DNA of 64,000 bases from an uncultured Alistipes sp. (GTDB lineage: Bacteria; Bacteroidota; Bacteroidia; Bacteroidales; Rikenellaceae): NCBI GenBank assembly GCA_944326855.1, contig CALVFO010000017.1, forward strand, positions 16,133 to 80,132, in the 5' to 3' direction. Shown here piece after piece: positions 33,067 to 45,980 of this stretch. A program made the position numbers and the translations under genes. Under the pieces are notes generated by a model, which did not search any database, was not told where the DNA came from, and saw only the letters and a program-made list of their open reading frames with translations. Numbering within the stretch: position 1 is the stretch's first letter; each line of letters starts with the position of its first letter.

Positions 33067-36000
33067 ATGCTGAACAAAATCATCAACTACTCATTACACA
33101 ACCGACTGTTGGTAATGATCATGGCGGCTCTGGTGACCGGTGTCGGTCTCTACACCGCCAACCGCATGGAAGTCGACGTCTTTCCGGACCTGAACGCCCC
33201 GACAGTAGTAGTCATGACCGAAGCCCTCGGAATGGCTCCCGAAGAGGTGGAACGGACCGTCACCTTCCCAATCGAAACGGCCGTCAACGGAGCGACCGAC
33301 GTTCGGCGCGTCCGTTCGAGTTCAACCACCGGATTTTCGATCGTCTGGGTGGAATTCGATTGGGGCACCGACATCTACCGGGCCCGGCAAATCGTATCCG
33401 AAAAACTGAGCACCCTGGGCGAAACCCTGCCCGACAACGTCGGAACCCCCGTTCTGGGTCCCCAGTCCTCCATTCTGGGTGAACTGATGATCGTGGGACT
33501 GACCGCCGATACCACCTCGATGCAGGAGTTGCGGACACTGGCCGACTGGACCCTGCGTCCCCGTCTGCTTTCCACCGGTGGGGTGGCCCAGGTTACCGTC
33601 ATCGGAGGTGACATCAAAGAGTATCAGATTCTGCTCGACCCGCAACGCATGAAACACTATGGGGTATCGGTCGATGAGGTGCTGGCCGTCGTACAGAACA
33701 TGAGTCGGAACGCCAACGGTGGGGTCTTGAACCAATACGGCAACGAATACCTCATCCGAGGGATGCTTTCCACCACCTCGACCTCGGAAATGGCCAAGGC
33801 TGTCGTAAAAACCGTCGACAACAATCCCGTCCTGCTGGAACACATCGCCGATGTACGGATCGGAGGCAAAACGCCCAAAGTGGGGGTAGCCTCGGAAAAG
33901 GGGAAAGCGGCCGTTTTCCTGACCATCACCAAGCAGCCGAATACCAACTCGTTGGAATTGACCGAAAAGTTGGACGCAGCCATCGCTGAAATGCAGGCCC
34001 AACTGCCCGAAGACATTCATATCTCGACCGATGCGTTTCGGCAGGCCCGTTTTATCGACAACTCGATCGACAACATCCAGAAAGCCCTGCTCGAAGGGGC
34101 CGTATTCGTCGTCATCGTGCTGTTCTTCTTCCTGATGAACGCCCGCACGACGCTGATCTCGCTGATTGCCCTGCCGCTCTCGCTGCTGGTTGCCATTCTG
34201 GCGCTCGAAGCCCTGGGGCTGACCATCAATACCATGAGTCTGGGAGGAATGGCCATCGCCATCGGATCGCTGGTGGATGACGCCATCATCGATGTCGAAA
34301 ACGTATTCAAACGCTTGCGGGAAAACTTCCGCCGCCCTAAAGACGAACGTCTGCCGACCCTGAAAGTCGTGTACGAAGCCTCGACGGAGATCCGCAGCTC
34401 GATCGTCAACGCGACCTTCATCACCATCGTGGCGTTCATTCCACTGTTTTTCCTGAGCGGCATGGAAGGCCGCATGCTCCGTCCGCTGGGAATTTCGTTC
34501 ATCGTAGCGCTGTTCGCCTCCATGATCGTCGCCGTCACGCTGACTCCCGTTCTGTGCAGCTACCTGCTGACCGGAGAACGCACCTTGCACCACAGCGAAA
34601 AGGAACCTTTCCTCTCCCGCTGGCTCAAAAGCATATATGAACCGGCCTTGGAATGGGTTCTGCGACATAAACGACTCGTACTGGGAGGCACCCTCGCGCT
34701 ATTTATCGTCTCGCTGTTCATCTTTACCGGGTTGGGACGCAGTTTCTTACCGGCCTTCAACGAAGGCTCGCTGACGATCAACGTCGCCACCATGCCGGGC
34801 GTTACGCTCGAAGAGTCGAACCACATCGGACAAAGCGCCGAACGTATCCTGATGTCCATTCCCGAAATCCAAACCGTCGCCCGCAAAACCGGACGCGCCG
34901 AACTGGACGAACATGCCCTGGGCGTGAATGTCTCCGAAATCGAGGCTCCGTTCTTGCTCAAGGAACGTTCCCGCAGTGAATTTATGGCCGATGTCCGTCG
35001 CAAACTGAGTGTCCTGCCGGGCGTCAACATCGAAATAGGACAACCCATTTCGCACCGCATCGACGCCATGCTTTCGGGCACCCAGGCCAACATCGCCATC
35101 AAACTCTTCGGTACCGACCTGAACCGCATGTTCAGCCTCGGCACCCAAATCCGCAACGCCATCGCCGACGTGGAAGGCATTGCCGACCTGAACGTAGAAC
35201 AACAGATCGAACGTCCCCAACTGCAGATCCGACCCCGACGCGAGATGCTGGCTCGTTACGGCATCACGTTGCCTCAGTTCTCCGATTTCGTCGAAGTGGC
35301 TCTGGCCGGCCGGGTAGTTTCGCAAGTATACGATCAGGGCCGTTCGTTCGACGTCACCGTCAAGGTGAACGACTCCGACCGCGACCGCATGGAATCGATC
35401 GGCAATCTCTGCATCGAAGGCGCCTATGGAAAAGTTCCGCTGAATTACGTGGCGGAGATCGTTTCCAGCTCGGGCCCCAACACCATCAGTCGTGAAAACG
35501 CCCAGCGCAAAATCGTCATTTCGGCCAATGTTTCGGATCGCGACCTGCGGGGCGTGGTCAACGACATCCAGCGCATTATCGACGAACAGATCGTCCTGCC
35601 CGAAAACTACCACATCGAGTACGGCGGTCAGTTCGAAAGCGAAGCCAATGCCTCCCGCATCCTGTTGCTTTGCTCGATCGTCTCGCTGCTGATTATCTAT
35701 CTGCTGTTGTTCCAGGAGTTCCGCAGCCTGACCGTTGCCGGAGTCATCATGCTCAACCTGCCGCTGGCGCTGATCGGGGGTGTACTGAGTCTGTGGATCA
35801 CCTCGGGCGAATTGAGCATCCCGGCCATCATCGGATTCATATCGTTGTTCGGGATTGCCACCCGCAACGGGATTCTGCTCATCTCGCACTACAATCATCT
35901 CCGCACGGAAGGCCTCTCGTTGCACGATAGCGTCATCCGAGGTTCGCTCGACCGTCTGAACCCCATTCTGATGACAGCCCTGACGTCTGCCCTGGCCCTG

Positions 36001-36156
36001 ATTCCGCTGGCGCTGGGCGGAGACCTGCCGGGCAATGAAATCCAAAGTCCGTTGGCGAAAGTGATTTTGGGTGGTCTGCTCAGTTCGACGCTGCTCAACG
36101 GATTCATCATCCCGATCGTCTACCTGATTGTCAACCGTAAAACCGAAACTGCATGA
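33067..36156 (+). CDS. CusA/CzcA family heavy-metal RND efflux pump
   Basis: A 1029-residue twelve-helix proton-driven pump. It has the RND pattern of helix 1, a large periplasmic loop, helices 2-6, then a second half. In helix 4 the proton-relay acidic residues stand in GGMAIAIGSLVDDAIIDVEN, a variant with two adjacent aspartates and a further Asp and Glu, unlike the CusA MVDAAI or CzcA VDGAVV forms. Which metal it exports is therefore open (Cu/Ag, Zn/Co/Cd or other). The adaptor precedes it by 12 bases and the channel gene overlaps its stop by 4 bases. Confidence 0.93.
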   Translation: MLNKIINYSLHNRLLVMIMAALVTGVGLYTANRMEVDVFPDLNAPTVVVMTEALGMAPEEVERTVTFPIETAVNGATDVRRVRSSSTTGFSIVWVEFDWGTDIYRARQIVSEKLSTLGETLPDNVGTPVLGPQSSILGELMIVGLTADTTSMQELRTLADWTLRPRLLSTGGVAQVTVIGGDIKEYQILLDPQRMKHYGVSVDEVLAVVQNMSRNANGGVLNQYGNEYLIRGMLSTTSTSEMAKAVVKTVDNNPVLLEHIADVRIGGKTPKVGVASEKGKAAVFLTITKQPNTNSLELTEKLDAAIAEMQAQLPEDIHISTDAFRQARFIDNSIDNIQKALLEGAVFVVIVLFFFLMNARTTLISLIALPLSLLVAILALEALGLTINTMSLGGMAIAIGSLVDDAIIDVENVFKRLRENFRRPKDERLPTLKVVYEASTEIRSSIVNATFITIVAFIPLFFLSGMEGRMLRPLGISFIVALFASMIVAVTLTPVLCSYLLTGERTLHHSEKEPFLSRWLKSIYEPALEWVLRHKRLVLGGTLALFIVSLFIFTGLGRSFLPAFNEGSLTINVATMPGVTLEESNHIGQSAERILMSIPEIQTVARKTGRAELDEHALGVNVSEIEAPFLLKERSRSEFMADVRRKLSVLPGVNIEIGQPISHRIDAMLSGTQANIAIKLFGTDLNRMFSLGTQIRNAIADVEGIADLNVEQQIERPQLQIRPRREMLARYGITLPQFSDFVEVALAGRVVSQVYDQGRSFDVTVKVNDSDRDRMESIGNLCIEGAYGKVPLNYVAEIVSSSGPNTISRENAQRKIVISANVSDRDLRGVVNDIQRIIDEQIVLPENYHIEYGGQFESEANASRILLLCSIVSLLIIYLLLFQEFRSLTVAGVIMLNLPLALIGGVLSLWITSGELSIPAIIGFISLFGIATRNGILLISHYNHLRTEGLSLHDSVIRGSLDRLNPILMTALTSALALIPLALGGDLPGNEIQSPLAKVILGGLLSSTLLNGFIIPIVYLIVNRKTETA

Positions 36157-37334
36157 AACGTTTGATATTCCTTCTGGTCTGCGCACTCCCCGGATGGGGT
36201 ACGCTCACCGCCCAAAATACCATCGAAGAGGTTCTCTCCCGAGTCGAACAGGCCTCCATCGCCATGGAAGCCCAACGCAAACTGACCGAAGCCCAAAAGC
36301 TGGAAGCCAAAACCGGCAATTACCTGACCAATCCTTCGGTCGGTTATGAAAGCATGTGGGGCAGCGGTGAAAATCGCGGGAATGCCGGGGAACTGTCGGT
36401 CGTACAGGCTTTCGATTTCCCGAGTGCCTATGGCAACCGGAACAAGATCGCCCGGCTCAAAGGCCAAATGTACGAACAGCAGGGAGCGGCTTTCCGTCGA
36501 CAGATTTTATTGGATGCCAAAATGGCGTGTCTGCAGATCATTTACCTCAGGCAACAGGAGAGCTTGCTCCAGGAACGGCTCGCCAATGCGGAGAAACTCG
36601 CTCAGGTATATCAACAAAAACTCGAGGCTGGAGATGCCAATATCATTGCCATCAATAAAATCAACATCGAAAAGTTGAATGCGCAGACGGCCTTGAGTCT
36701 GAATGGAACGGCGCTGAAGAGTCAGCTCGAACAACTGTCGAATCTGGTCGGAGGCGAACGCATCGAATTCGAAAGCCAGGTTTATCCTCCCGAAACGGCC
36801 CTGCCGTCTCTTTCCGAAATCGAAAGCCGTTACCTGAACGATGACCCCAATCTGCTGGCTCTGGAACAGGCTTACAGCATCGACCAACGGAGCATTGCCC
36901 TGAATCGGTCGCTCTCCCTGCCGCAATTCGAAGTGGGGTATCGCCAGAATTTCGGCATGGAAGGGAAAGCCAAAGGGTTTCTGGTCGGCATCTCCGTTCC
37001 GTTGTTCGAAAACAAAAACAAGGTCAAAGCCGCCAAGGCCCGCAGCTTCTTCTCGCAAGCCCAACTGCAAAGCTCCAAACTCAATCTCAAAACCGAACTC
37101 GCCCAACTGTACGAACAGGCCCAAACCCTGCAACGGTCGGGCAATGAACTGCGGTCGCTGTTGAGCCAGCAAAACAACCTGGAGATTCTGCAAAAAGCGC
37201 TCGAAGCCGGACAGATCGATATTATCGAATACTTTACCGAAGTCAATATTCTGTTTGAGAGCCGGGCGCAACTCCTGACGATCGAACGGGACTATCGCCT
37301 GGCCACCGCCCAGTTGTTCCGCTATACCTTGTAA
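36153..37334 (+). CDS. TolC family outer-membrane channel of the metal efflux operon
   Basis: A 393-residue protein with a signal peptide (LIFLLVCALPGWGTLTAQ) and two long alpha-hairpin repeats typical of outer membrane efflux proteins (PF02321): TIEEVLSRVEQASIAMEAQ at the start and NEIVQA-like coils later (for example ALEAGQIDIIEYFTEVNIL). Its ATG overlaps the pump stop (ATGA at 36153-36156), indicating translational coupling. It should complete the tripartite metal exporter. A strong terminator follows. Confidence 0.9.
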   Translation: MKRLIFLLVCALPGWGTLTAQNTIEEVLSRVEQASIAMEAQRKLTEAQKLEAKTGNYLTNPSVGYESMWGSGENRGNAGELSVVQAFDFPSAYGNRNKIARLKGQMYEQQGAAFRRQILLDAKMACLQIIYLRQQESLLQERLANAEKLAQVYQQKLEAGDANIIAINKINIEKLNAQTALSLNGTALKSQLEQLSNLVGGERIEFESQVYPPETALPSLSEIESRYLNDDPNLLALEQAYSIDQRSIALNRSLSLPQFEVGYRQNFGMEGKAKGFLVGISVPLFENKNKVKAAKARSFFSQAQLQSSKLNLKTELAQLYEQAQTLQRSGNELRSLLSQQNNLEILQKALEAGQIDIIEYFTEVNILFESRAQLLTIERDYRLATAQLFRYTL

Positions 37335-38997: not shown

Positions 38998-39005
38998 TAT
39001 CTTTG
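38998..39005 (+). promoter_or_regulatory. -7 box for the giant PLP/P-loop gene
   Basis: TATCTTTG at 38998-39005, 91 bases before the ATG at 39096. The -33 region (ACTGGG near 38973) matches only partly. Confidence 0.55.
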
Positions 39006-39095: not shown

Positions 39096-42000
39096 ATGAA
39101 AATTGTAGGAGAACCGAAAGCCTTTTTAAGCCAGGAAGCCCGCCAATTACTCAATCTGTATGAGTCGCTGGGAGAGAGAGCCGAGATCCTGTTGCCTCGT
39201 CACATTTTCGACAACCTGACCAGTTTTGTGTCCCTCTGCATGGAGGAACCCGACGATCCCGCCAAACAGCAGGCCGAAATCAATCGTTACCTGCTCAAAT
39301 TCCGCGAGGACATTCCGGGGTACACCCATGTGTCGCTGATGCTCGTCCCGCACAACAACTCCAAAGCCTTCGAGCTGAGCAGCAAACGAGGCGAATTCAC
39401 CCATAAGATCAATGCCCTGCTCGATACGGACGGCACCGGTCCCGAAGTTAAAAACATCCTGCGCAATATCCGCGACAGTCACGACCTGTCGGTAGGAACA
39501 CCGCCCATCAACAGTTCGCATATCGATTTCATGTCCCAAGTGCAGTTGGGCGGCCATGTTCGTGATCTGAGAAAATACCGGGATGTCATCGGGGTGACGG
39601 GCGATATCAACGAAGCCCACTGGAACTACCTGATGGACACCCTCGAACAGATGATCAGCCAAAGCACCCACTACACCACGCAGGCCGAAAAGAAAGACTT
39701 CCTGCATCGTACGCAGTGGGCGGTGAATTTCAAAGGGATGAACGGCATGATCCGCACCGTGGTGTCGGGCAATGCCGACAAGGCGGTCTCGTTGCTTCGG
39801 GGCGATGTCTTCAACAAGGATTGCGTGGTGGTGATGGAAAGTCCCTCGCCCGAAGTGTTGTACGAAAAGATGACGACCGACACCACTTCGGTATTCGTCG
39901 TCAAGGTAAAGCACGCCCGTATCAACCACTACGCAGGCGAAAAATGGTTCCCGCTGTTGACCCGTCTGGTGATCGTGGACGACTCCAAGGAGTCGCGCAG
40001 TTCGAACACCTCGCTGGTTTTCTGTTTCCACAACGGCATCATCAACACCCTGAACATCGTTCACACAAAAAAACTGGGTTCCCCGGCCAATACGCAGCTC
40101 AACCTGCGGTTGATCCTCGAAAACGTCAACCTGAAATACCTGATCGAATTCCGCGAAAAGATCGAAGCCCAGATCGCCGAATACACCCGCGAACTGAACA
40201 TTCTGCTCAAGGAACAGACCGGGGAGACGGACGACGTGGAAAAACGCATCACGCTGTTCAAGCTCGACGCTTTTTCACGTCAGGTGGTTCAGGACAAATA
40301 TTCGCTGGAGAAACTGCGCGACTTCATCTTCTTCCTGGAAAACTGCCACAAGCAGGACAACAAGAAAATCCAGACCCAGGAGCTGATCGACGAGTTCGAA
40401 AGCCGCATGAAACAATACTTCTACGCCGGCAACAAACTCATCGACGTAATCACCATCCTGGAGGGTGGGGGACGCCACCAGATCAAAACCTTCGGCGATT
40501 ACCTGCGCAGCAAAACCTTCAACAACCTGGGTAGCCGGATTCGCTATGCCTGTCGGTTGATTCTGGACATCATTCCCAGCTGTTACGAACGGACCCTGCA
40601 CAACCATTTCCACAAGAATTTCGGCATCAATCTCTTTTTGGAAAAGTATCAGGAATACCTGACCAAAACCATCAAGGATGCCGACAACAAAGGCCGTTAC
40701 GAAAAATTCCTGATCGATCTGGGAATTCGGGACAAATACTTCGCCCTGAGCGAAGAGGACCAGAACATCGTCAAGAATTTCCTGTCGGCGCTGGGTAATT
40801 TAGATCAGACCTCGGTGTCGGACTCGGTCCAGATGATCATCCGCGACCTGCTCTTCAACCCGAACGGGCGGCCGAAACCTTATATCATCTACAACGCGGT
40901 ACAGGCCTGGGAATACAAAGACCTGCTGCCGGACGACTGTTTCGACATCAATCCTTTCGACATCGAAATCGAAAACGACGAGAAAGGACGACTGGCTTAT
41001 GACCGTCTGATCGACAAGTTGCAGCGGATCAAATCGACACTGGCGTTGTTCGACGACAGCGGCAGTCTGTGGGATCTGTTCTGCGAGAACACGACCATCA
41101 TCATCAACGACCCCAACAACCCGACCGGATACAGCGACTTCAACACCGAAGCGATCAATAATTTCCTGCGCTTCCTGAACAGTTGCAAGATCACCCTGTT
41201 CCTGGACGAAGCCTATGCCGAAAGCGTCAAGATCGAAGATCGAGAGATGCCCAAATGGCGGACGATTTCGCGTTACATCATGAACAACATCAACGCCCAG
41301 TCGCGCATCAAGGCCATCTCGTCGCTCTCGACCACGAAAAACCTGGCGGCCACGGGAGAACGCCTGGGGGCCGTTGCCCTGACGCCTCAGGCCTCCGATT
41401 TCGCCAAATACGCCCGCAGCTGCAACAGTGCCGAACACGGCAACAACAATTCGTTGCTGATGCTCAACAACACGCTGGAAACAGCTCAGGTAGCCAAAAG
41501 CATCAAAGACCAGATCGAAGCCGAGTTGCCGAAAAACGCTTCGCGCTCGAAGATCAAAAAGGCCATCATTAAATTCATCGTCAACCAGATCGACAAGACG
41601 AAACAGAATAACGAAATCAGCAAAACCAACCGCCAGTTGCACAAAACGGCCGGATTCGAAGGTTCTCCGCTATATCTTTTCCTGCTGGACGAACTGGTCG
41701 CCCTCGACAAACTGGATGTTTTGGGATTGCCGGACGACTTCAAATACCACGATGAACCGTTCTTCATCTATTACCAACAACGACTGGTCGAAAATCTGAA
41801 CCGCTTCCGGGTCAACAAGAATTTCCGTAAGGAATCGCTCACCCGTCAAAAAATGGCTCAGGGGATTGCCAAACGTCTGTTGGAAGAGGCTCCCGAGGGC
41901 ACTCAACTGGATTACATCCAGTCGGACGGTTCCTACCTGTTCAACTTCCGGATTACCGGTCCCTATGCCTATCCCGATCTGTTGCTGTTCTGTCGGGCCC

Positions 42001-45000
42001 TGGCCAAAAACAAAGGCGTCGCCACGGTACCGTACCCCACGGGGCTGATCCGCTTCTCTCTGGGTGGATACATCAATGCCTCGCCTCAGGGGATGAAGGT
42101 ATTTGCCGCCGAAATCGAGGATGCTTTTTCGATTCTGATCAAATACTGGACCCGGTTCGCGACCCTTCGAGCCGATGAAGCCAACAAGGAGAAAGAGAGT
42201 AGCGAGCTGCTCGCTCAGGTATTCTATTACCCTAAGGACCAGGACTTTATCAACGCCGTTATCGAAGACTACGCTCTCTCGGCCCGGTACAAAAAAGACA
42301 AAGCCCCGTCGTTGCAGATCCGCGACGTCCGCTCGCTTTACCACACCTCTCCCGAAAAGAGCGGTGTAACGATCACCACCATCGGACGTTCGGCCAATTC
42401 GGTTATCGAATTGCACGGCGATCTGATCGGTTCGTGCAAGGACGTCTTCGAGTTTGTCAAGAGTTCGGCCTTCACCAAGGTGTACGAAAACCTGTTGGCC
42501 CAGGTCTATCGCAAGATTCCGGCCCTGGCCGACCTGGACTTCAATAAAGTCAGTTCGAAATACAGCAAAGCGGTCATTCTCAAATACATCACCAACAAGC
42601 GGACGTTCCAGCCCAATCACCACGTACTGGATAATCCCGAAGAAAAGAACGTGATGCGGGAAATCCTGATCGAGATGGAGAACCTGCTCTTCTCGGACAG
42701 CAAGATGAAAATCCTGGCCATCAACGCCACGGGAGACCCCGAACTGGACAAGGCCAAACTGGAGGGACTGAACTCCATTCTCAAGAAACATATCCGCGAA
42801 ATCCTGTTGCACTTCAACCTGCCGTTCGAAAAAGAGAGTCTGGAACCCAGCCGCCGCGAGATCATTCACGTGGCCGGAGAGTGCTTCGAAGAGATCACGG
42901 GCATCAAACTGACCGATCTGAATCTCAATATCTGGATCGACGAATTCATGCGCAACCTGCGCGAAATTCCCGAATTCCGCTCGTTGGAAATCTTCTCGCG
43001 TCGCAGCATCGGATACATTGAAGAGATGATCTATCAGGGCGTAGACAACGCCCCCGAGGTAGCGGACAAGATTCTCTACCTGTACCTGCTCAACAACGAT
43101 AATTCGTTCTACAAACAGGTTTGCAACAAACTGAAATACTTCAGCCAACGCATCGAAAGTTGTGACGATGGCGAATTGAGACTGTTCGCCGAAGAATTCG
43201 TATCGAGTCTGCTTCCCATGGAGTTGCGAGAACTGAGCAACTATATCATGCGCAAGAAGGACATTAAAATCGCCGAAAGCGAAATCTATTCGGTCAGCCG
43301 CCGGGTCGTGCGTTTCTACATCAGCATGATCAAGCGTACCCGGGGAACGGATTATTACAACCGTTACGCCCACACCATGGTACGCATCGTGGAAACGGCC
43401 TTCAAAAAGCAGAATTCCAGCGTCAACGAAATGGTGCAGCACGGCATTTCGCTTTACAAGGGCTTCGAGATGGAGAACAAGACCCTGGAAACGTTCGACA
43501 AAGGCCGTATCAGCTGGATCAACGAGCTGATGTCCAAATGCGGAGTCATCTCCTCGGAACAGCCCGTTCAGGTTCATACCCGCATCGTCACCGACGCCAA
43601 GAAACGCGAATACCCGTTCCACAAAATCGACCGGCTCGACAGTCGTAAACCGGATGGAGAAATCCCCTCGGACTACCCGGCCGAATATATCCGCTATATC
43701 GATACCCGACCGGCTTCATCGTTCTTTATGGACCGGCTGGCGCGTTTCGTCGAAAACATGGACTCGGACGACTATCGCTGCAAAGTAGTGAAACACGGGA
43801 TTGTCAAAGAGTTGGTTATTTTCCAGAAAGGGTACATGAAATACCTGACCGACAACTACCGACTCAACTACACCGAAGATATCAGTCTGAAGGACATTCG
43901 CAATTTCGTTCCGGACGTAATTTCACTGCTGGGAGCTCCCGAAAAGCTGATTTCGTTCCCGCAGATCGGTTATTTCGACATTAAAGGTCCTTCGGGCAAC
44001 ATCAAGACGATCGTTACGCCGCTCAAATCCGAAGCCGACTATTTCGGCGACGTCAAGAAACCGCGTCTGACGGTCATCAACGAAAAAGTGAAAGAAATCG
44101 GAGGGATTCCGCGTCACGGATCGTTGTTCATGGTCGAAGAGAACGACGGAAGTGTGTTCGTGATCGAAATCAACGGCGACAGCGGGGTAGGTAAGAGCGA
44201 AATGATCGCCGCCTTTGTTCTCAAATGGCTACGCAACAACCTCGAAGGGATCCGGTCGGTAAAAATGATCGCCGGAGACATGTTCCACGAATTCCAGGAT
44301 GCCGACGGCAACCTCTACGGCATCGGCACCGAAGTAGGAGACTTCTCCCGCACTACGGACTTCGACCCGGATTATATCAAATACTACAAGTACCTGTTCG
44401 AAAGCAGTGCAGACAGCAACGTGGACGACCTCAATTCACGCAGTACGGTCAGCGGCATGTGCGATATCACCATGCCGTACAAGGTGGACATCATGCTTTC
44501 GGCCAGCAACTACGCCAAAGACGAAGGAGGCATTACCCGGGTGGATAATCCCGAAAACTTCCTGCTGTACATCGACGCCCACGGCGAACGCAAGGAAAAG
44601 GCCACCAGTCAGGACGGTCCCAATTTCCACCGGACGCTCAAACGCTATACGGCCGACAAAAACATCGTGGAAGTAATCTCCAAACACGGCAACTACCTGG
44701 ACGAAATTCTCGACTGGGACTATTCCCCCGTCGAAAAGCAATACTACCTGGCCTCATCATTCAAGTTGATGGACAAGGTGGATATTCCCGAAGTGGTTCG
44801 CATGATTTTCGTGGGCCACAGTTTCACCCGCGAAGGCATCCGTTATCGGATCGACAGCGTCGATTTCGACATGATCCAAAACCGATTCATCGCGTCTGTA
44901 AGCTACACGCAGGACGAAGAACCCGGTTATGCCGAAATGAAAATCGACCGCAAGATGTTCAGTGCCATTTTCGATGCGCTGGCCAGCACGCCGGGCGGTC

Positions 45001-45821
45001 AGCCCTTCATTGCTGAAGAGGGACAAATGGAATGCATCCAGAATCTGATCACCTGTCTGCGGGGTGGAAAAGACGGCAAGGGGAAAGCCCGTCTGATCCA
45101 ATGCGGGGTACTGTCGACCGAAATCGGCAAGAAGGGCCGTGAGATCACCGGCCCTCAGAAAGCCGCCGCCGCCCTCAAACAACTGATCCAGGAGGTTCGG
45201 GTCAATAAACCGGAGATCAATGCCGGCAAGATCAAGGTCAAGGAACTGATCAACGACAAGTATCGCCACATTTTCGGTGGAGAGATGAACAGTTCGGAGA
45301 TCTGGCGCTACAACTTCTACCTGTATCAGTTGGATATCATGCGCAAAGCCGATCTGCGTCGGATGGACAACCGAAACAAGAAAGTGGATATCACCAATCT
45401 GGTGGATTTTCACCCTTCGGATCGCAAACAGGAATTCAGTCCGCTGTTGGTGACCCCGAATCTCAACATCGAGTTAACAAGTTTCAGCGAAACCTACGAC
45501 GAGCTGATGAGCTTTCCGAACTATCCGGAATTTGCCGAAGAGTTCGCCGCCAAACTCGACCTGCTCTACCTGGCCGAAGGATACAGCGAAGAGACCAATA
45601 TCAATAACATGATCGTTCAGTTACTGATGCTCGAAGGATACATCAACAGCGACGATTTGGCCCGGGGCAGCGTCATCGAGAAAGTGAATCGGGAAACCAT
45701 CGCCGCCGCCAAATACGCCGTCGTACAATACCTGAATCATCGGAAAGCCGTGGCCGCTCCAAGCGATTCACCCAAAGCCACCGCTCCTTCCGAATCGGCC
45801 GTAAAACCGACGGTACAGTAA
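39096..45821 (+). CDS. 2241-residue PLP aminotransferase-like / HprK-PEPCK-like P-loop fusion protein
   Basis: One uninterrupted frame without signal peptide or membrane helix, so cytosolic. About 1-500: no recognised domain. About 500-1040: fold-type-I PLP enzyme with N671-D-P-N-N-P-T-G678, D704-E-A-Y707 (ring-nitrogen Asp), SSLSTTK with the likely Schiff-base lysine K748, R756 eight residues later, and R986 (LIRFSLGG) in the place of the carboxylate-binding Arg; a long helical insertion lies between. About 1040-1640: unassigned, helical. About 1640-1960: kinase-like domain with INGDSGVGKSE (P-loop G1694-S1701), then AGDMFHEF, GIGTEVGDF and VDIMLSASNYAKDEGG, resembling the HPr kinase/PEP carboxykinase superfamily. 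About 1960-2241: unassigned, low-complexity end. It could activate or phosphorylate an amino-acid-like substrate, but the reaction is unknown. Confidence 0.85.
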   Translation: MKIVGEPKAFLSQEARQLLNLYESLGERAEILLPRHIFDNLTSFVSLCMEEPDDPAKQQAEINRYLLKFREDIPGYTHVSLMLVPHNNSKAFELSSKRGEFTHKINALLDTDGTGPEVKNILRNIRDSHDLSVGTPPINSSHIDFMSQVQLGGHVRDLRKYRDVIGVTGDINEAHWNYLMDTLEQMISQSTHYTTQAEKKDFLHRTQWAVNFKGMNGMIRTVVSGNADKAVSLLRGDVFNKDCVVVMESPSPEVLYEKMTTDTTSVFVVKVKHARINHYAGEKWFPLLTRLVIVDDSKESRSSNTSLVFCFHNGIINTLNIVHTKKLGSPANTQLNLRLILENVNLKYLIEFREKIEAQIAEYTRELNILLKEQTGETDDVEKRITLFKLDAFSRQVVQDKYSLEKLRDFIFFLENCHKQDNKKIQTQELIDEFESRMKQYFYAGNKLIDVITILEGGGRHQIKTFGDYLRSKTFNNLGSRIRYACRLILDIIPSCYERTLHNHFHKNFGINLFLEKYQEYLTKTIKDADNKGRYEKFLIDLGIRDKYFALSEEDQNIVKNFLSALGNLDQTSVSDSVQMIIRDLLFNPNGRPKPYIIYNAVQAWEYKDLLPDDCFDINPFDIEIENDEKGRLAYDRLIDKLQRIKSTLALFDDSGSLWDLFCENTTIIINDPNNPTGYSDFNTEAINNFLRFLNSCKITLFLDEAYAESVKIEDREMPKWRTISRYIMNNINAQSRIKAISSLSTTKNLAATGERLGAVALTPQASDFAKYARSCNSAEHGNNNSLLMLNNTLETAQVAKSIKDQIEAELPKNASRSKIKKAIIKFIVNQIDKTKQNNEISKTNRQLHKTAGFEGSPLYLFLLDELVALDKLDVLGLPDDFKYHDEPFFIYYQQRLVENLNRFRVNKNFRKESLTRQKMAQGIAKRLLEEAPEGTQLDYIQSDGSYLFNFRITGPYAYPDLLLFCRALAKNKGVATVPYPTGLIRFSLGGYINASPQGMKVFAAEIEDAFSILIKYWTRFATLRADEANKEKESSELLAQVFYYPKDQDFINAVIEDYALSARYKKDKAPSLQIRDVRSLYHTSPEKSGVTITTIGRSANSVIELHGDLIGSCKDVFEFVKSSAFTKVYENLLAQVYRKIPALADLDFNKVSSKYSKAVILKYITNKRTFQPNHHVLDNPEEKNVMREILIEMENLLFSDSKMKILAINATGDPELDKAKLEGLNSILKKHIREILLHFNLPFEKESLEPSRREIIHVAGECFEEITGIKLTDLNLNIWIDEFMRNLREIPEFRSLEIFSRRSIGYIEEMIYQGVDNAPEVADKILYLYLLNNDNSFYKQVCNKLKYFSQRIESCDDGELRLFAEEFVSSLLPMELRELSNYIMRKKDIKIAESEIYSVSRRVVRFYISMIKRTRGTDYYNRYAHTMVRIVETAFKKQNSSVNEMVQHGISLYKGFEMENKTLETFDKGRISWINELMSKCGVISSEQPVQVHTRIVTDAKKREYPFHKIDRLDSRKPDGEIPSDYPAEYIRYIDTRPASSFFMDRLARFVENMDSDDYRCKVVKHGIVKELVIFQKGYMKYLTDNYRLNYTEDISLKDIRNFVPDVISLLGAPEKLISFPQIGYFDIKGPSGNIKTIVTPLKSEADYFGDVKKPRLTVINEKVKEIGGIPRHGSLFMVEENDGSVFVIEINGDSGVGKSEMIAAFVLKWLRNNLEGIRSVKMIAGDMFHEFQDADGNLYGIGTEVGDFSRTTDFDPDYIKYYKYLFESSADSNVDDLNSRSTVSGMCDITMPYKVDIMLSASNYAKDEGGITRVDNPENFLLYIDAHGERKEKATSQDGPNFHRTLKRYTADKNIVEVISKHGNYLDEILDWDYSPVEKQYYLASSFKLMDKVDIPEVVRMIFVGHSFTREGIRYRIDSVDFDMIQNRFIASVSYTQDEEPGYAEMKIDRKMFSAIFDALASTPGGQPFIAEEGQMECIQNLITCLRGGKDGKGKARLIQCGVLSTEIGKKGREITGPQKAAAALKQLIQEVRVNKPEINAGKIKVKELINDKYRHIFGGEMNSSEIWRYNFYLYQLDIMRKADLRRMDNRNKKVDITNLVDFHPSDRKQEFSPLLVTPNLNIELTSFSETYDELMSFPNYPEFAEEFAAKLDLLYLAEGYSEETNINNMIVQLLMLEGYINSDDLARGSVIEKVNRETIAAAKYAVVQYLNHRKAVAAPSDSPKATAPSESAVKPTVQ

Positions 45822-45834
45822 CCGTCGCTGAATC

Positions 45835-45881
45835 GAGAAACGAATGGCCCGGGATAAAAAATCCCGGGCCATTCGTTTCTC
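45835..45881 (+). terminator. Terminator after the giant gene
   Basis: A perfect 21-bp stem (45835-45855 with 45861-45881) with loop AAAAA, starting 13 bases after the stop codon. It is the longest hairpin in the window. Confidence 0.85.
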
Positions 45882-45980
45882 GGTCCCATTCACTCTGGCA
45901 CCCCGTATCTGTCGAGAGTCGGAAAGAGAACTTCCGATCGAGTCGTATTGCCTGAGCGAGAACCGGACTGTAAGCGAGAA

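What the first reader, a model, noticed from the sequence alone, without database searches (positions are those of the whole stretch)
39096..45821. Giant PLP-aminotransferase / HprK-PEPCK-like P-loop fusion protein
One 6.7-kb frame joins a complete fold-type-I PLP active site (N671 to G678, D704, K748, R756, R986) to a C-terminal P-loop GDSGVGKSE (1694-1702) with further HPr-kinase/PEP-carboxykinase-like motifs, plus about 1,100 residues with no family I recognise. I know of no described enzyme with this pairing. A PLP step plus ATP- or PP-type phosphotransfer in one chain suggests a new amino-acid modification or a large regulatory enzyme. The gene has its own promoter and a 21-bp hairpin terminator, so it is a self-contained unit.
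Basis: partly seen in the sequence, partly recalled or inferred. Interest (0 to 1): 0.85.

Follow-up and report, generated by a model that had tools for sequence, protein, structure and literature searches.

The report
Giant aminotransferase and PEPCK-like fusion enzyme
One very large bacterial protein carries two intact-looking enzyme parts, one that moves amino groups and one related to the enzyme that turns oxaloacetate into phosphoenolpyruvate; it is kept whole in many gut and other bacteria, and our literature searches did not find it described.

Summary
One open 2,241-codon frame (39096-45821) is under strong purifying selection and occurs full-length, about 50-97% identical, in dozens of Bacteroidota genomes of two GTDB classes. 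Residues about 480-1035 are a fold-type-I PLP aminotransferase whose six diagnostic residues are invariant in 45 aligned rows (42 distinct genes). The P-loop part (about 1441-2035) is a relative of phosphoenolpyruvate carboxykinase (PEPCK), not of HPr kinase: it aligns with a stand-alone ~580-residue PEPCK-like family found here in Bacteroidales and on a Limosilactobacillus plasmid, and through it with canonical PckA. P-loop, paired lysines, histidine, one metal-site aspartate and an arginine are invariant; the other aspartate is glycine. About 1,200 residues match nothing known. All 18 carriers checked also have PckA, so the giant does not replace it. In one bacterial family the stand-alone relative lies just upstream of a PEP-carboxylase gene. 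Best guess: a single-chain enzyme that links an amino acid, perhaps aspartate, through its oxo-acid to a phosphorylated product. Architecture shown; activity and substrates inferred. New variant of known kinds.

The parts
39096..45821 (+). Giant gene, 2,241 codons plus stop
   Evidence: Open frame; purifying selection; full-length relatives
39096..40505 (+). Residues 1-470: conserved N-terminal region without a known family
   Evidence: No Pfam family shared by the members above noise; no PDB sequence match up to E 10; 48-55% identical in the other-class members
40533..42200 (+). Residues 480-1035: fold-type-I PLP aminotransferase domain
   Evidence: PF00155 E 5.4e-11, 30 of 30 members; hhalign probability 97, E 4e-11; 4my5 E 3.6e-4 and 1o4s E 1.5e-3 over the C-terminal lobe
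41337..41339 (+). K748, predicted PLP lysine
   Evidence: Invariant in 45 of 45 rows (42 distinct genes)
42201..43415 (+). Residues 1036-1440: mostly helical middle region, no known family
   Evidence: least conserved part, 40-46% in the other-class members
43416..45200 (+). Residues 1441-2035: PEPCK-like phosphotransferase domain, with an insert at about 1861-1998
   Evidence: hhalign to 13 stand-alones probability 99.6, E 1.8e-23, and for about 1999-2032 E 3.7e-5; Foldseek top 50 all PEPCK; alignment
44175..44201 (+). P-loop GDSGVGKSE, residues 1694-1702
   Evidence: G1694, S1696, K1700, S1701 invariant in 45 of 45 rows
45201..45818 (+). Residues 2036-2241: C-terminal region without a known family, ending in a variable tail
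38998..39005 (+). Promoter-like octamer TATCTTTG; weak
   Evidence: no commoner than chance in the window
45832..45884 (+). 24-bp hairpin after the stop, no U-run after it

Best explanation
A single-chain bifunctional enzyme. The aminotransferase domain binds PLP through K748 and converts an amino acid, most plausibly aspartate, to its 2-oxo-acid (oxaloacetate) or the reverse. The PEPCK-like domain binds a nucleotide and metal at the P-loop (K1700, S1701), with K1655, H1674 and D1728 as the second metal site and R1782 near the transferred phosphate, and moves a phosphoryl group to or from the enolate of that oxo-acid. In the simplest case the chain links aspartate, oxaloacetate and phosphoenolpyruvate; the unassigned N-terminal and middle regions would be scaffold, regulator or a third catalytic part. 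Shown: the two homologies, invariance of the catalytic residues, and a fusion that persists over about 50% divergence. Inferred: activity of both sites, coupling between them, and the substrates. Residue roles are recalled from AspAT and E. coli PckA.
For: Both catalytic residue sets invariant in 45 of 45 rows, 42 distinct genes. The PEPCK-like part is the most conserved, 65-69% against 40-55% for the other parts in the four other-class members. Relation to PckA through the stand-alones: E 1.8e-23, then E 2.5e-7. Foldseek top 50 all PEPCK. In one family the stand-alone relative lies upstream of, on the same strand as, a PEP-carboxylase gene in 4 loci, which ties this kinase family to the PEP/oxaloacetate node; an aminotransferase is the enzyme that connects that node to aspartate (established knowledge).
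Against: 18 of 18 carriers tested also have canonical PckA. The first of the paired PEPCK aspartates is glycine (G1727) in all rows, and no counterpart of the oxaloacetate-binding arginine R65 could be recognised. The aminotransferase scores far below every subfamily cut-off, so its substrate is open. Both structure models are poor (pLDDT 59) and no Foldseek hit reaches E 0.001. The giant has no conserved operon. The ppc link rests on four genomes of one family and on the stand-alone form, not on the giant.
Confidence: 0.35

Rival explanations
1. The PEPCK-like domain is a kinase for another acceptor (an amino acid, another metabolite or a protein) and works with the PLP step to make a phosphorylated compound unrelated to PEP.
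For: PckA coexists in 18 of 18 carriers; G1727 replaces a PEPCK aspartate in 45 of 45 rows; no oxaloacetate-binding arginine recognised; stand-alone and giant domains are far from PckA.
Against: The arginine matching the PEPCK NxR motif and the KK/H/D set are kept; the stand-alone form sits beside ppc in one family.
Confidence: 0.33
2. A metabolic sensor and regulator: the aminotransferase domain senses an amino acid without net turnover, as in GabR- and PdxR-type regulators, and the PEPCK-like domain phosphorylates target proteins, as HPr kinase does.
For: Best Foldseek hits of the N-terminal half are the aminotransferase domains of GabR (E 7.9e-3), and PdxR is among the first 50; size and many helical regions without a family; stand-alone form beside ppc and an aldolase gene in one family.
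Against: No HPr-kinase model matches the giant and the stand-alones match PF07475 only at E 0.09-0.16. No DNA-binding or signalling family was found. The Foldseek hits are weak and mixed with ordinary aminotransferases.
Confidence: 0.2
3. A structural or scaffold protein whose enzyme-derived parts no longer catalyse.
For: One PEPCK aspartate is replaced in all rows; nearly 1,200 residues have no enzyme family.
Against: The other tested catalytic residues are invariant in 45 of 45 rows down to about 50% overall identity; strong purifying selection.
Confidence: 0.05

Closest known systems
Stand-alone PEPCK-like proteins of 574-587 aa (L133-L144; L. fermentum plasmid protein in L056)
   Same: Same PEPCK-like domain: YFGxxKK in 13 of 13, GD[ST]GxGKSE in 13 of 13, GTExG in 13 of 13; E 1.8e-23
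   Different: No aminotransferase, no N-terminal or middle region; DDM where the giant has GDM
ATP-dependent PEP carboxykinase (PckA, PF01293)
   Same: Fold by Foldseek, P-loop, KK, H, second Asp, NxR
   Different: About 540 aa and not fused; the giant has no PF01293 match, lacks the first Asp, has an insert and no recognised R65 counterpart
Fold-type-I aminotransferases (PF00155; aspartate, alanine, tyrosine aminotransferases, ACC synthase)
   Same: PLP lysine, Asp, Tyr, Asn and both Arg; both lobes
   Different: Embedded in a 2.2-kilo-residue chain; not assignable to a subfamily
GabR/PdxR (MocR-type regulators)
   Same: Aminotransferase fold inside a larger protein; best weak Foldseek hits
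   Different: No DNA-binding domain was found in the giant
DUF4914 (PF16260)
   Same: PEPCK-like P-loop and DDM; hhalign with the stand-alones probability 86, E 5.5e-6
   Different: About 630 aa, no fusion; against the giant only E 0.0025
HPr kinase/phosphorylase (PF07475)
   Same: GDSGxGKSE-type P-loop (recalled)
   Different: No PF07475 match in 30 giant C-halves up to E 5; structural and profile matches go to PEPCK

Membership tests
Fold-type-I aminotransferase (PF00155) | Profile match over the curated cut-off | tested here: met
   42.7 bits against 19.7; 30 of 30 members match, best E 1.1e-12
Fold-type-I aminotransferase (PF00155) | Asn, Asp, Tyr, PLP Lys and two Arg (N675, D704, Y707, K748, R756, R986) | tested here: met
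   Each invariant in 45 of 45 rows, 42 distinct genes
Fold-type-I aminotransferase (PF00155) | Complete predicted fold | tested here: inconclusive
   pLDDT 59; Foldseek best E 7.9e-3 to GabR, mixed weak list
PEPCK superfamily | P-loop, KK pair, His, metal-site Asp, NxR arginine | tested here: met
   K1654, K1655, H1674, K1700, S1701, D1728, R1782 invariant in 45 of 45 rows; correspondence, residue roles recalled
PEPCK superfamily | Homology to PckA | tested here: met
   Giant to stand-alones E 1.8e-23, stand-alones to 17 PckA E 2.5e-7, direct only E 2.5e-4 with probability 43; Foldseek top 50 all PEPCK
ATP-PEPCK proper (PF01293) | Profile match over the curated cut-off | tested here: not met
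   No PF01293 match in the giant up to E 1 or in 30 C-halves up to E 5
ATP-PEPCK proper (PF01293) | Two consecutive aspartates (DD) after the P-loop | tested here: not met
   G1727-D1728 in 45 of 45 rows
ATP-PEPCK proper (PF01293) | Oxaloacetate-binding arginine (R65 of E. coli PckA, recalled) | tested here: inconclusive
   N-terminal lobe does not align reliably
ATP-PEPCK proper (PF01293) | Oxaloacetate + ATP to PEP + CO2 + ADP | not testable with these tools
   Needs an assay
HPr kinase (PF07475) | Profile match | tested here: not met
   None in 30 C-halves up to E 5; stand-alone relatives only E 0.09-0.16
PPi-dependent PEPCK | Sequence relationship to characterised PPi-PEPCKs | not tested
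   No such sequence was at hand; a review calls them unrelated to the ATP/GTP enzymes (PMC8100219, passages), to which the giant is related

The most novel reading that the evidence does not exclude
A one-chain metabolic machine that passes an amino acid through its oxo-acid to a phosphorylated product, with a third, unrecognised catalytic domain in residues 1-470: for example a short-cut from aspartate to PEP that avoids free oxaloacetate and coexists with PckA.
Probability: 0.25. Interest if true: 0.82.

Novelty: new variant of a known kind. Interest (0 to 1): 0.62.

Why it matters
A 2.2-kilo-residue protein kept whole over about 50% divergence in Bacteroidota is costly and must be selected for. 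If the reading is right, it adds an enzyme to the PEP-pyruvate-oxaloacetate node or a new PLP-plus-phosphotransfer chemistry. It also outlines an unnamed branch of the PEPCK superfamily, with stand-alone and fused forms, that falls below the Pfam cut-off for PEPCK. Both active sites can be disabled by single residues, so the function is directly testable.

Tried and rejected
HPr-kinase membership: rejected. Phage, plasmid or viral origin: no match in 50,697 phage records, no relative in three scans of viral contigs, and in 72,556 plasmid records only one stand-alone relative. Defence role: only PADLOC DpdH at E 0.053 on the P-loop, taken as chance. A second, degenerate aminotransferase in residues 1-470, suggested by eye: hhalign E 0.16, no better than one reversed and five block-shuffled controls (E 0.031-0.31); an earlier alignment with E 0.089 over 239 columns did not survive the larger aminotransferase set. 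Aspartate 4-decarboxylase as closest aminotransferase: E 1.7e-4 against 5.3e-8 for six generic aminotransferases, but the former is a single sequence, so the two are not strictly comparable. Replacement of PckA: rejected. Direct sequence profile of the PEPCK-like part against PDB: best PEPCK E 0.11, with unrelated hits at similar E, so not significant on its own. Confident structure: not reached (pLDDT 59.2 and 58.6). A cobalamin threonine-kinase/decarboxylase analogy was searched as a listing only and not pursued.
Full report
The gene. The frame 39096-45821 on the + strand is open for 2,241 codons and gives one match in its own genome. The neighbouring ORFs on both sides run on the opposite strand. 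Against L005 there are 95, 30 and 748 differences at codon positions 1, 2 and 3, and 734 synonymous against 81 non-synonymous codon changes. It is a real, constrained gene. A 24-bp hairpin (-45.9 kcal/mol, z -10.3) follows the stop, without a U-run. The promoter-like octamer is no commoner than chance in the window.

Distribution. A pattern scan of GTDB species genomes, which finds close relatives only, gave 28 loci with names of Alistipes, Rikenellaceae, Odoribacter and one Porphyromonadaceae MAG, 73-97% identical in the best segment. Whole-genome searches, each count including the window's own genome where it lies in the group, found the gene in 29 of 150 genomes of the family, 12 of 22 genera; in 2 of 296 drawn across the phylum; and in 6 of 146 of an order in another class, where the end-to-end copies are 53-54% identical. 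In the window's own order 32 of 393 genomes match. By my reading of that table 23 hold the giant (20 end to end, one from residue 62, one split over two contigs, one fragment at a contig end), 8 hold only the PEPCK-like part as a ~580-aa protein, and one is a weak N-terminal match (E 3.7e-4) that blastp of that locus did not reproduce at E 0.01. Nothing like it was found in phage records or viral contigs, and in plasmids only one stand-alone relative. Profiles of the C-terminal half and of the PEPCK-like part recover only giants in the phylum-wide draws: 2 of 296 and 3 of 395.

Aminotransferase part. PF00155 is the only Pfam match of the whole protein up to E 1 (E 5.4e-11, residues 664-807) and is found in 30 of 30 members. 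hhalign with 18 aminotransferases (those of 53 fetched loci that passed a length and motif filter) gives probability 97, E 4e-11. The domain profile reaches the C-terminal lobe of solved aminotransferases (4my5 E 3.6e-4, 1o4s E 1.5e-3), so both lobes are represented. N675, D704, Y707, K748, R756 and R986 are invariant in 45 of 45 aligned rows. No NCBIfam subfamily comes near its cut-off (best 28.6 bits against 376); the substrate is not assigned.

PEPCK-like part. AlphaFold2 of the C-terminal half from 30 sequences is poor (pLDDT 58.6), yet the 50 best Foldseek matches shown, of 451 with E up to 10, are all PEPCKs with probability 0.99-1.00; the best E is 1.5e-3, none reaches 0.001, and TM-scores are low. 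A tblastn search of plasmids gave one hit, a 569-aa Limosilactobacillus fermentum protein annotated as PEPCK (E 1e-5; blastp of the pair E 9e-13), itself just under the Pfam PEPCK cut-off (23.9 against 26.5 bits). The order-wide search showed Bacteroidales stand-alones of 576-587 aa. hhalign, with E-values for single pairs: giant against 13 stand-alones probability 99.6, E 1.8e-23; stand-alones against 17 PckA probability 93, E 2.5e-7 over 264 columns; giant against PckA directly probability 43, E 2.5e-4. Residues about 1999-2032 match the last 34 residues of the stand-alones (E 3.7e-5), so the domain ends near 2035 and carries an insert at about 1861-1998. Y1649, K1654, K1655, H1674, G1694, S1696, K1700, S1701, D1728, R1752 and R1782 are invariant in 45 of 45 rows; G1727, also in 45 of 45, replaces the first of the paired aspartates, which the stand-alones keep (DDM in 13 of 13). 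Residue roles are recalled from E. coli PckA. Against this reading, the sequence profile alone does not reach PEPCK structures significantly (best E 0.11), and single stand-alones match PEPCK and HPr-kinase models about equally weakly (E 0.04-0.07 and 0.09-0.16). On a FastTree of 66 sequences the 45 giant rows group together (support 0.62) and so do the 13 stand-alones (0.99), but the 8 PckA did not come out as a clade after rooting, so the root, and with it a single fusion origin, is not established.

Unassigned parts. Residues 1-470, 1036-1440, about 1861-1998 and 2036-2241 showed no family: Pfam scans of 30 members gave only weak, inconsistent matches, and residues 1-470 have no PDB sequence match up to E 10. 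Residues 1-470 are about as conserved as the aminotransferase part and rich in invariant His, Lys, Asp and Asn, so a third activity is possible. The idea that they hold a degenerate second aminotransferase failed its controls.

Context. In 24 loci plus the window the commonest neighbour family occurs in only 7 loci, and shared neighbours lie mostly in close relatives (in L024 the simple ORF caller took an antisense frame in place of the giant). In 15 further loci, three of them repeats of earlier contigs, recurring neighbours are mostly within one family. In L129 the giant is followed on its strand by a succinyl-CoA-ligase-like gene (Pfam), a sucD-like gene (by eye) and an aminotransferase gene (Pfam). 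The stand-alone gene is followed on the same strand, about 85-160 bp away, by a ppc-like gene in 4 of 13 loci (one scanned: PF00311, 1078 bits; the others by blastp clustering) and lies divergently beside a DeoC/LacD-type aldolase gene in 3 of 13 (one scanned). These seven loci come from four genomes of one GTDB family, so they count as two associations, not seven. PckA is present in 18 of 18 giant carriers and 10 of 10 non-carriers tested.

Interpretation. The pairing of an aminotransferase with a PEPCK relative, and the link of the stand-alone form to PEP carboxylase, both point to the oxaloacetate/PEP node; hence the leading reading of aspartate, or a similar amino acid, to oxo-acid to phosphorylated product in one chain. 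Against it stand PckA in every carrier tested, the lost aspartate and the unproven oxaloacetate site. A kinase with another acceptor is almost as likely, and a sensor-regulator is possible.

Literature. Six searches of the held PubMed Central library for the architecture or its parts returned no paper. Three broader ones returned listings, of which I read only passages of PMC8100219. Most subscription papers and all preprints are outside that library, so 'undescribed' means not found by these searches.

Noticed in passing
L133, L135, L137, L140 (stand-alone PEPCK-like genes, coordinates): In four genomes of one family a stand-alone PEPCK-like gene lies about 85-160 bp upstream of a ppc-like gene on the same strand. 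It may encode a regulator or partner of PEP carboxylase.
   Followed up: partly
L136, L138, L139: Second copies of the stand-alone gene lie divergently beside a DeoC/LacD-type aldolase gene in three genomes of the same family.
   Followed up: partly
L056:8290-9999 (L. fermentum plasmid CP033373.1): A plasmid protein annotated as PEPCK falls below the Pfam PEPCK cut-off and groups with the Bacteroidales stand-alones, so the annotation may be wrong.
   Followed up: partly
L097, L098 (DUF4914 proteins): DUF4914 looks like another branch of the PEPCK superfamily (GASGGGKSEM P-loop and DDM; hhalign with the stand-alones probability 86, E 5.5e-6).
   Followed up: partly
L142, L143, L144: Three stand-alones have GDTGAGKSE in place of GDSGAGKSE and ADDM in place of FDDM, a possible second subfamily.
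   Followed up: no
L118, L119, L132: In three genomes of one family a LysE-like exporter gene (recognised by eye) lies convergent to the 3' end of the giant.
   Followed up: no
window 33067-37334: An RND heavy-metal-efflux-like gene followed by an outer-membrane-efflux-like gene, both recognised by eye only and syntenic in some close relatives.
   Followed up: no
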